Both the position numbers and the translations under genes were made by a program. Positions 15,518-18,894 of a DNA stretch of 36,400 bases are shown here, one piece after another. Below the pieces are notes generated by a model. The model searched no databases and was not told the origin of the DNA. It saw only the letters and a program-made list of their open reading frames with translations. The DNA is taken from contig LZRV01000033.1 in the NCBI GenBank assembly GCA_002159065.1, forward strand, positions 1-36,400, read 5' to 3'. The first letter of the stretch is position 1. The number at the start of each line of letters is the position of its first letter. This stretch comes from Paenibacillaceae bacterium ZCTH02-B3. Its GTDB lineage: Bacteria > Bacillota > Bacilli > Paenibacillales > Paenibacillaceae.

Positions 15518-16120
15518 TTACGCTTCCCTGACCATGGCTTGGGGCCGGCCCGAAGACGGTCTGCCGGTCTCGAGCATCTCGCGGATGCAATCCATGATCG
15601 CCTTGGTGGCCAGCTCCGCGTCACCGCCGTAGGGGGCAAGGTCCAGCGGTTCCCCGTAGACGACAATCATCTTGGAAAAAGGGCGGTAATGGCCGATCAG
15701 GGCGACCGGCACCACCGCGGCCCCCGCCCGCAGCGCGATGGTCACCGCGCCGCGCTTGCCCTCGCCCAGCGTGCGGTTGCGCGTTCCCTCGGGGAAAACG
15801 CCCAGGATGTTGCCGCAGCGGAGGATGTCCAGCGCGGTGCGAAGCGTCTCCTTGGTGACCCCTCCGCGCTTTACAGGAAACGCGCCGAAATACCGGATGA
15901 TTCCGCGCAGGACCGGAACCCTGAACAGTTCTTCCTTGGCCATGTAATACACTTTGCGGTTCAGCCAGGCGGCCAGCGAAACGGGATCCTGCACGTTTTT
16001 GTGGTTGCTGCACAGCACCACGGGTCCCTCGGCGGGCACATTGGACGCGCCCCGCGGTTCCATGCGGTACAGCGCCCTGAGCAGCGCCCGCGCGATGATC
16101 CGGCAAATGCGGTATACCAT
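15518..16120 (-). CDS. plsC: 1-acyl-sn-glycerol-3-phosphate acyltransferase
   Basis: PlsC adds the second fatty acid to lysophosphatidate, making phosphatidate, the step after PlsY. The 200-residue protein has the four acyltransferase blocks: NHKNVQDP near residue 38 (the HX4D catalytic pair, with Asn where many have Ser), FGAFPVKRGG, VFPEGTRNR, and VVPVALIGHY. A hydrophobic N-terminal stretch (YRICRIIARALLRALY) probably attaches it to the membrane. The ATG at 16120 has AGGAGA eight bases upstream and follows the cmk stop by three bases. The cmk-plsC-ypfD order is common in Firmicutes. Confidence 0.94.
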   Translation of the reverse strand: MVYRICRIIARALLRALYRMEPRGASNVPAEGPVVLCSNHKNVQDPVSLAAWLNRKVYYMAKEELFRVPVLRGIIRYFGAFPVKRGGVTKETLRTALDILRCGNILGVFPEGTRNRTLGEGKRGAVTIALRAGAAVVPVALIGHYRPFSKMIVVYGEPLDLAPYGGDAELATKAIMDCIREMLETGRPSSGRPQAMVREA

Positions 16121-17278: not shown

Positions 17279-17301
17279 AAAAAAACCGGCGTCATCCGCC
17301 G
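17279..17301 (-). terminator. Intrinsic terminator overlapping the end of ypeB
   Basis: The minus strand has CCGGCG-GATGA-CGCCGG followed by six T. The 5' arm is made by the last ypeB codons and the loop contains the TGA stop, so the terminator overlaps the coding end. Confidence 0.85.
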
Positions 17302-18671
17302 GCCGTCCCTTCCTGCTTGTCCGGGAGCCTTTCCACCGATTCTTCGGCGCCCGTTTCCGCGTTCATGAAGATGCGGTACGTGGAATCGTTGATCTTCCCG
17401 GTGAAAACGTGGCAGAGGACCAGCTCGTGCACGTCGTTTTCGATGACGCCCATGTGGTGTTCCTCCAGCCGGAAGCCGCCGTTCAGGCCCCGCCTGGCTT
17501 CTTCCGCGCCGATCTTCGCCGGGCGGGCCGCCACCGTCTTTGCTTCCTCTGGCGCGAACACGTGGTCCGCCGCCATGAGGCCGATCACCTCGCCGTCGTC
17601 CAGCGCCACGCGCACGGTGGCCTTGTCGGGATAAATCCGCACGCCGTTCCGAACGGCCGCGAACACGAAGGACGCCGTCCGTCCGTATCTGTCCGCCGAA
17701 ATCGGCTCCATCCCCTCAAGACCCGTCCGATCGAGGAAATTCGCCGCCTTTTCCCGCGCTTCCCCAAGTCCGATTCGCGGCTCGCCCGGTTCCCGCAGCC
17801 GGACGTACCGGAGCAGCCGCCCGCCTTTCCTCGTGAAGTCCATCCGGATCTCCGCGCCGTTATCGTCTTCCGCGGAAACGGCGAATCCGGGCAGTTCCGT
17901 CCCGATTCCGTATTCCTCGACCCGCATCCCGCCGGCGGCAAGCCGCCCGAGTCCGGCTTTCCGCAGAAATTCCCGCGCCTTCGCCTCCGCTTCCTCCGCG
18001 TTGACGGGCATGCCGTCCAGGTCGTTCTCCGAGCGTCTCCGCTCGGCGGAAAGCACGGACGGGCTCCAGCCGTCATCCGGATAGGTTCCGGCTTTCCGGT
18101 CCAGGGTGCGGAAGCCGTCGATGATGGCGCTGTCGTAGGGTTCCTTTTCCGTGGCCAGGGCCACTTCCACGTCCATCCAACGCAGCCTCTGCCGGATGAC
18201 GTCGTTCTGCAGCCGGTCCAGCTCGCCGCCGATTTCTTCGGACGCTTTGTACAGGGATTTGAGCATCTTGATCTCCTCTTCCGACAGCGGCTGTTTTTTC
18301 AGATCCCGCACGGCGGTATGGTAGGCGAATTCGGACAGCCGCGCCAGGAACTGCTCGGCCTTGTTCAGCGGCATCATGGCCAGCGGGAGCTGGCTGATGT
18401 CGCTTTGCGCCTCGCTGGTGAGACGCCAGACGTTGATCAGGCCCTTGCGGTGCATCCCGTCCGACTTTTCGGAAACGGCCAGGGTCCGCCCGAGCTCCTC
18501 GTGAAGGCGGTTCATCCGCTGCGTCAGATCGTGAAAGGCCCGTTGGTACGTGTTTTCCGCCTTGATCAGAACCGCGTTCTTTTCCTGGTGTTCCTGGTAA
18601 CCCCAAACGATCGCTCCGGCAAACAGAAATGCGAAAACCGGGAAAAACACCCGGCTCAAACGTCCGTACAT
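17292..18671 (-). CDS. ypeB: Spore germination protein YpeB
   Basis: YpeB is exported to the spore envelope, where it is needed for the localisation and stability of the cortex-lytic enzyme SleB. The 459-residue protein begins MYGRLSRVFFPVFAFLFAG, a signal anchor, followed by a long helical N-terminal domain (to about residue 200) and then PepSY-type repeats, with the conserved EEARRGLNGGF, HELVLCHVF and YRIFMNAETGAEESVERLP near the end. Length is near the B. subtilis protein (450). Its ribosome site AAAGGAG is buried in a perfect 13-bp hairpin that begins just after the upstream small gene. sleB, normally directly upstream, is absent from this locus. Confidence 0.93.
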   Translation of the reverse strand: MYGRLSRVFFPVFAFLFAGAIVWGYQEHQEKNAVLIKAENTYQRAFHDLTQRMNRLHEELGRTLAVSEKSDGMHRKGLINVWRLTSEAQSDISQLPLAMMPLNKAEQFLARLSEFAYHTAVRDLKKQPLSEEEIKMLKSLYKASEEIGGELDRLQNDVIRQRLRWMDVEVALATEKEPYDSAIIDGFRTLDRKAGTYPDDGWSPSVLSAERRRSENDLDGMPVNAEEAEAKAREFLRKAGLGRLAAGGMRVEEYGIGTELPGFAVSAEDDNGAEIRMDFTRKGGRLLRYVRLREPGEPRIGLGEAREKAANFLDRTGLEGMEPISADRYGRTASFVFAAVRNGVRIYPDKATVRVALDDGEVIGLMAADHVFAPEEAKTVAARPAKIGAEEARRGLNGGFRLEEHHMGVIENDVHELVLCHVFTGKINDSTYRIFMNAETGAEESVERLPDKQEGTAGG

Positions 18672-18676
18672 GACAC

Positions 18677-18734
18677 GCCGGCTCCTTTCGCCCGTTGGCC
18701 TTTTTTGCCGTTAGTTTGGGAGAAAGGAGCCGGC
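18677..18734 (-). promoter_or_regulatory. Hairpin hiding the ypeB ribosome-binding site
   Basis: On the minus strand GCCGGCTCCTTTC (18734-18722) is a perfect complement of GAAAGGAGCCGGC (18689-18677), with a 31-base loop. The second arm contains the ypeB Shine-Dalgarno AAAGGAG ten bases before its ATG. The first arm begins two bases after the TAA of the upstream 52-codon gene. No T-run follows. A ribosome finishing the small gene would cover the first arm and free the ypeB site, which suggests translational coupling. Confidence 0.75.
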
Positions 18735-18735
18735 T

Positions 18736-18894
18736 TTATGCGTCTTCCACCTGGATGTCGAAGTCGTCGGTGTTGTCGCAGAGGCACATTCGGAATCCGG
18801 TTTCGATGCGATCCTTCTCTTTGCGGCCGCGAAGAACGAATCTCTCGCCGCATCGCCTGCAGCGAATGGTCACCTTCACCCGTCGGCCGGCCAT
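18736..18894 (-). CDS. Small zinc-ribbon-like protein, unknown function
   Basis: A 52-residue protein, start ATG at 18894 with AGGGGG six bases upstream. It begins MAGRRVKVTIRCRRCGERFV and ends in an acidic tail (NTDDFDIQVEDA). Two pairs of cysteines, CRRC at residues 12-15 and CLC near 37-39, look like a zinc-binding ribbon, and the many basic residues between them would allow nucleic-acid contact. I believe similar small proteins occur in Paenibacillus, but no function is known to me. It lies between prsW and ypeB, where sleB stands in B. subtilis. CATACTG at 18928-18934 (minus) resembles a sigma-G/F -10, with a poor -35. Its stop codon adjoins the ypeB hairpin. Confidence 0.75.
   Translation of the reverse strand: MAGRRVKVTIRCRRCGERFVLRGRKEKDRIETGFRMCLCDNTDDFDIQVEDA

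What the first reader, a model, noticed from the sequence alone, without database searches (positions are those of the whole stretch)
18677..18738. Perfect 13-bp hairpin traps the ypeB ribosome site and starts right after the stop of a 52-codon gene
Seen directly: GCCGGCTCCTTTC at 18734-18722 and GAAAGGAGCCGGC at 18689-18677 (minus strand) are exact complements; the second arm holds the ypeB Shine-Dalgarno. The first arm starts two bases after the TAA of the small zinc-ribbon gene. With a GC-rich stem and no T-run this is not a terminator. Inference: ypeB is translated only when a ribosome finishing the small gene melts the hairpin, fixing the ratio of the two proteins and silencing leaky ypeB mRNA.
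Basis: partly seen in the sequence, partly recalled or inferred. Interest (0 to 1): 0.62.

Follow-up and report, generated by a model that had tools for sequence, protein, structure and literature searches.

The report
Hairpin silencing read-through mRNA of ypeB
A hairpin next to a spore-germination gene seems to hide the gene's ribosome site on any long message that leaks in from the gene upstream, while the message made from the gene's own spore-specific promoter starts inside the hairpin and stays readable; the trick is known elsewhere, but this conserved example in Paenibacillus relatives appears undescribed.

Summary
The hairpin is real: a perfect 13-bp stem (18734-18722 with 18689-18677, minus strand), the only one of its kind in the window, with the ypeB Shine-Dalgarno (SD) in its 3' arm. 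A transcript from that promoter would start in the loop, lack the 5' arm and leave the SD free. Only an upstream read-through mRNA can form the hairpin. Predicted SD opening cost in the window: 20.1 kcal/mol (long mRNA), 5.1 (sigma-G mRNA), 4.5 (long, spacer shuffled). Across 109 Paenibacillales loci the medians are 11.6, 3.8 and 4.7. Coupling to the small gene's stop is not the conserved feature: the stop usually lies well upstream, and the hairpin persists in 65 of 81 such genomes. Where a terminator insulates ypeB, the hairpin tends to be weak (clear in Cohnella; only marginal after correction for relatedness). sleB in the same genome has a similar 13-bp design. Best reading: an insulating hairpin that silences read-through ypeB mRNA, working like phage T4 gene e and the B. 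subtilis sigG leader. New member of a known kind; no expression data.

The parts
18736..18894 (-). 52-codon small conserved Cys-pair gene (C-x2-C ... C-x-C) upstream of ypeB
   Evidence: ORF; homologues of 48-64 aa upstream of ypeB in 107 of 110 loci; four Cys invariant in 9 aligned; no Pfam or NCBIfam hit over cut-off
18737..18741 (-). predicted sigma-G -35 element GCATA (overlaps last codon and stop of the small gene in the window)
   Evidence: GNATA at 18 or 19 nt from the -10 in most of 110 loci; consensus from PMC3416734
18719..18736 (-). 18-nt promoter spacer that contains the 5' arm
   Evidence: spacer 18 in 93 and 19 in 10 of 110 loci
18722..18734 (-). 5' arm of hairpin, GCCGGCTCCTTTC (anti-SD)
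18712..18718 (-). predicted sigma-G -10 element CAAACTA, in the hairpin loop
18704..18708 (-). predicted transcription start region (about 12 nt from the first base of the -10); not measured
   Evidence: inference from promoter geometry
18677..18689 (-). 3' arm of hairpin, GAAAGGAGCCGGC, holding the ypeB SD
17292..18671 (-). ypeB (germination protein YpeB)
   Evidence: TIGR02889 323.6 bits, cut-off 303.55; PF20769 and PF14620
18945..19646 (-). prsW, same strand, upstream of the small gene; possible source of read-through
   Evidence: NF033739 263.8 bits, cut-off 225

Best explanation
The hairpin insulates ypeB. ypeB has its own sigma-G (forespore) promoter, whose spacer is written so that its RNA copy is complementary to the ypeB SD. 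RNA entering from the upstream prsW/small-gene unit carries both arms, folds, and hides the SD, so ypeB stays silent outside the forespore. RNA started by sigma-G begins in the loop, lacks the 5' arm, and exposes the SD. Shown by computation: the promoter match, its conservation, the stem, and the predicted accessibility difference. Inferred: that read-through RNA exists, that initiation is where predicted, and that translation differs in the cell.
For: Consensus sigma-G promoter with fixed N18/N19 spacing (top score in 61 of 110 loci, 0 of 2790 control windows), matching GNATA / CAWAMTA, with ypeB and sleB listed as sigma-G genes in B. subtilis (PMC3416734). The GG of sigma-F -10 elements is mostly absent. 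Spacer-to-own-SD-region pairing beats shuffled spacers: mean z -3.36, 68 of 109 at p<=0.01; native pairing beats swaps among 33 diverged spacers, 0 of 20,000. SD opening cost 11.6 (long), 3.8 (short), 4.7 (shuffled spacer) kcal/mol; long minus short over 3 in 89 of 109. Clade alignments pair 81% and 89.5% of cells against 35-70% when slid. Terminator-bearing loci have weaker hairpins: within Cohnella 10 loci median 1.5 against 13 loci median 7.2. sleB shows the same design in the window's genome and often in relatives, 19 of 29; PBP promoters do not consistently, 8 of 26.
Against: No RNA or protein data. Few double compensatory changes (the SD side is constrained), and column-wise covariation is at or near shuffle level. 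RNAalifold finds no order-wide consensus because the register slides. With the SD core masked, the swap signal vanishes, though masking also breaks the helix. The terminator/hairpin trade-off is marginal after correction for relatedness (GLS p=0.057) and not seen in independent pairs. About 20 of 109 loci lack a clear effect.
Confidence: 0.72

Rival explanations
1. Translational coupling: a ribosome terminating on the small gene opens the hairpin and permits ypeB translation in a set ratio.
For: In the window the arm starts 1 nt after the stop, within a terminating ribosome's footprint. Hairpins are on average stronger where the stop is near the promoter (Spearman -0.49).
Against: The predicted sigma-G mRNA lacks the small gene and the 5' arm. 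The hairpin persists in 65 of 81 loci whose stop is at least 10 nt before the -35.
Confidence: 0.12
2. The hairpin is mainly an intrinsic terminator/attenuator for the upstream unit; sigma-G RNA escapes because it lacks the 5' arm.
For: About 40 of 109 relatives have 4-6 T between SD and start.
Against: The window has no T-run there; the terminator scan does not flag the site in the window or in L213 (the scan only allows loops of 3-8 nt). The loop is long (32 nt).
Confidence: 0.08
3. The complementarity is a by-product of promoter or SD composition, with no regulatory role.
For: Column-wise covariation is weak and some loci lack the pairing.
Against: Shuffled and swapped spacers pair worse, and other sigma-G promoters such as the PBP gene's do not show it consistently.
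Confidence: 0.08

Closest known systems
Phage T4 gene e (lysozyme) leader hairpin (PMC3014915)
   Same: Long early transcripts fold and hide the ribosome site; late-promoter transcripts lack the 5' strand of the structure and are well translated; also a lysis gene.
   Different: Phage late promoter, not a sporulation sigma factor; tested experimentally (about 100-fold), here only predicted.
B. subtilis sigG (spoIIIG) read-through hairpin (PMC5942855, citing Masuda 1988 and Sun 1991)
   Same: Forespore gene; large hairpin proposed to block translation of read-through mRNA from the upstream operon, unable to form on mRNA from the gene's own promoter.
   Different: Different gene and upstream unit. 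The 5' arm position relative to -35/-10 could not be compared from text.
Translational-coupling hairpins opened by an upstream terminating ribosome (general knowledge)
   Same: SD-sequestering stem next to an upstream stop codon.
   Different: Stop-to-arm distance is not conserved, and the own-promoter mRNA does not contain the stem.

Membership tests
Read-through-silencing hairpin with nested promoter (T4 gene e / sigG type) | SD paired with an upstream arm in the long transcript | tested here: met
   by prediction:
Read-through-silencing hairpin with nested promoter (T4 gene e / sigG type) | Promoter placed so that its transcript lacks the 5' arm | tested here: met
   by sequence only; start site not measured
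Read-through-silencing hairpin with nested promoter (T4 gene e / sigG type) | Long transcripts exist and are poorly translated, short ones well translated | not testable with these tools
   needs RNA mapping and reporters
sigma-G promoter | GNATA, 17-18 nt, CAWAMTA, without the GG of sigma-F | tested here: met
   (spacing from general knowledge)
Translational-coupling hairpin | Upstream stop conserved within ribosome reach of the 5' arm | tested here: not met
   81 loci with the stop at least 10 nt before the -35; met in the window itself
Intrinsic terminator | GC-rich stem followed directly by a U-run | tested here: not met
   window: no T-run; some relatives have T4-T6
Known Rfam RNA element | Match over gathering score | tested here: not met
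   only an 8.9-bit chance match

The most novel reading that the evidence does not exclude
Writing an anti-SD into the spacer of forespore promoters is a recurrent, order-wide way to keep cortex-lysis genes (ypeB, sleB, perhaps sigG) silent outside the forespore, interchangeable in evolution with an upstream terminator.
Probability: 0.35. Interest if true: 0.65.

Novelty: new member of a known kind. Interest (0 to 1): 0.5.

Why it matters
If true, one short DNA segment does two jobs: promoter spacer for the forespore polymerase and RNA lock against every other polymerase. That explains how a cortex-lysis partner can sit without a terminator behind another gene. It extends a mechanism known from phage T4 and from B. 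subtilis sigG to an order-wide germination gene, gives a sequence signature (spacer complementary to the SD) for finding more, and warns that long transcripts over spore genes need not mean protein.

Tried and rejected
Translational coupling as the main role. Early claim that the TAA in the -35 is generally the small gene's stop: wrong, it coincides only in the window and a few others. Intrinsic terminator in the window. Known Rfam element. Order-wide RNAalifold consensus: none. First structure mask on alignment A1 was off by one column, redone. SD-masked swap test gave no signal. Independent-pairs test of terminator versus hairpin had too few informative pairs; GLS marginal. ypeB-less genus g8 as a control: it also lacks the small gene and, in the one genome searched, sigG, so it was uninformative. 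Literature searches for a ypeB or Paenibacillus leader hairpin found nothing, in an open-access library only.

Full report
OBSERVATION. On the minus strand GCCGGCTCCTTTC (18734-18722) and GAAAGGAGCCGGC (18689-18677) are exact complements, and the second holds the SD of ypeB, ATG at 18671. The region folds at -64.4 kcal/mol, z -3.26 against dinucleotide shuffles. It is the only perfect stem of 13 bp or more with a 3-60 nt loop in the window, against 0.145 expected. ypeB is confirmed by TIGR02889 and Pfam.

The 5' arm lies inside the spacer of a sigma-G-type promoter: GCATA (18741-18737), 18 nt, CAAACTA (18718-18712). The published B. subtilis consensus is GNATA and CAWAMTA, and ypeB and sleB are listed there as sigma-G genes (PMC3416734). 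In 110 related loci the motif pair recurs with spacer 18 in 93 and 19 in 10; 61 reach the top score against none of 2790 control windows (the scoring motif was chosen after seeing these sequences). The GG typical of sigma-F is rare at the matching positions. Transcription from it would begin near 18706, in the loop, so this mRNA lacks the 5' arm.

PREDICTED EFFECT. Cost of opening the SD in the window: 20.1 kcal/mol on the long RNA, 5.1 on the sigma-G RNA, 4.5 on a long RNA with shuffled spacer. Medians over 109 loci: 11.6, 3.8, 4.7; long minus short exceeds 3 in 89. Over 80 named Cohnella and Paenibacillus loci (overlapping set): 12.75 against 4.2, over 3 in 69.

IS THE PAIRING SELECTED? Native spacers pair with their own start region better than shuffled spacers (mean z -3.36; 68 of 109 at p<=0.01) and better than spacers swapped among 33 diverged representatives (0 of 20,000). 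Clade alignments keep 81% (Cohnella) and 89.5% (Paenibacillus) of cells paired, 35-70% when slid. Double compensatory changes are few, and the order-wide alignment has no consensus fold because the register slides. With the SD core masked the swap signal is lost.

COUPLING OR INSULATION? In the window the small gene's stop abuts the arm, so coupling is conceivable. But in relatives the stop is usually upstream of the promoter; in 81 loci it is at least 10 nt before the -35, and 65 of these keep the hairpin. Where an intrinsic terminator separates the small gene from ypeB the hairpin is weaker: 22 of 40 terminator loci weak, against 4 of 125 without. Many terminator loci fall in one family, but the contrast repeats inside Cohnella (10 loci median 1.5, 13 loci median 7.2, p 9e-5). 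Correction for relatedness leaves it marginal (GLS p 0.057; independent pairs uninformative). It is therefore supportive, not decisive.

OTHER SIGMA-G GENES. Exact sigma-G pattern scans of the own genome give 11 hits, several of which have no plausible gene behind them. sleB, away from ypeB on contig C100, has a perfect 13-bp pairing of spacer plus -10 (CCTTTCCCATACT) with its SD region (AGTATGGGAAAGG); in relatives 19 of 29 sleB loci show a long-minus-short cost over 3. A PBP gene does so in only 8 of 26, so the design is not automatic for sigma-G promoters. sigG itself shows a difference in the own genome (13.0 against 7.7) and in 9 of 31 loci overall.

COMPARISON. The logic matches T4 gene e, where late-promoter transcripts lack the 5' strand of the inhibitory structure and are translated (PMC3014915), and the B. 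subtilis sigG read-through hairpin (PMC5942855). I found no description for ypeB (open-access library only). I classify it as a new member of a known kind.

LIMITS. Everything is computed from sequence. Start sites, read-through RNA and translation are not measured. The window's genome is an unnamed assembly in 187 contigs; its nearest named relatives by YpeB are Cohnella at about 55% identity.

Noticed in passing
window 18736-18894 (-): Small protein with four invariant Cys (C-x2-C, C-x-C) and no family-library hit over cut-off, conserved next to ypeB across Paenibacillales; absent together with ypeB in four genomes of genus g8, and the one of these searched also lacks a true sigG, so it may be linked to sporulation.
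   Followed up: partly
L115 (own genome C100:33814-36843): sleB lies apart from ypeB and has its own consensus sigma-G promoter whose spacer and -10 pair perfectly over 13 bp with its SD region.
   Followed up: partly
L116 (own genome C147, around 16081-16110): A sigma-G-like promoter whose spacer pairs over 11 bp with a site downstream that is followed by a T-rich stretch, upstream of the SD; perhaps a promoter nested in a terminator.
   Followed up: no
L016 (G043:C33): About 520 nt between the small gene and the ypeB promoter holding what looks like a tandem direct repeat of roughly 190 nt.
   Followed up: no
L302 (own genome C27:3500-6300): sigG leader with spacer CCCCCTCCCCCGGG able to pair with its SD GGGAGGG, as proposed for the B. 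subtilis read-through hairpin.
   Followed up: partly
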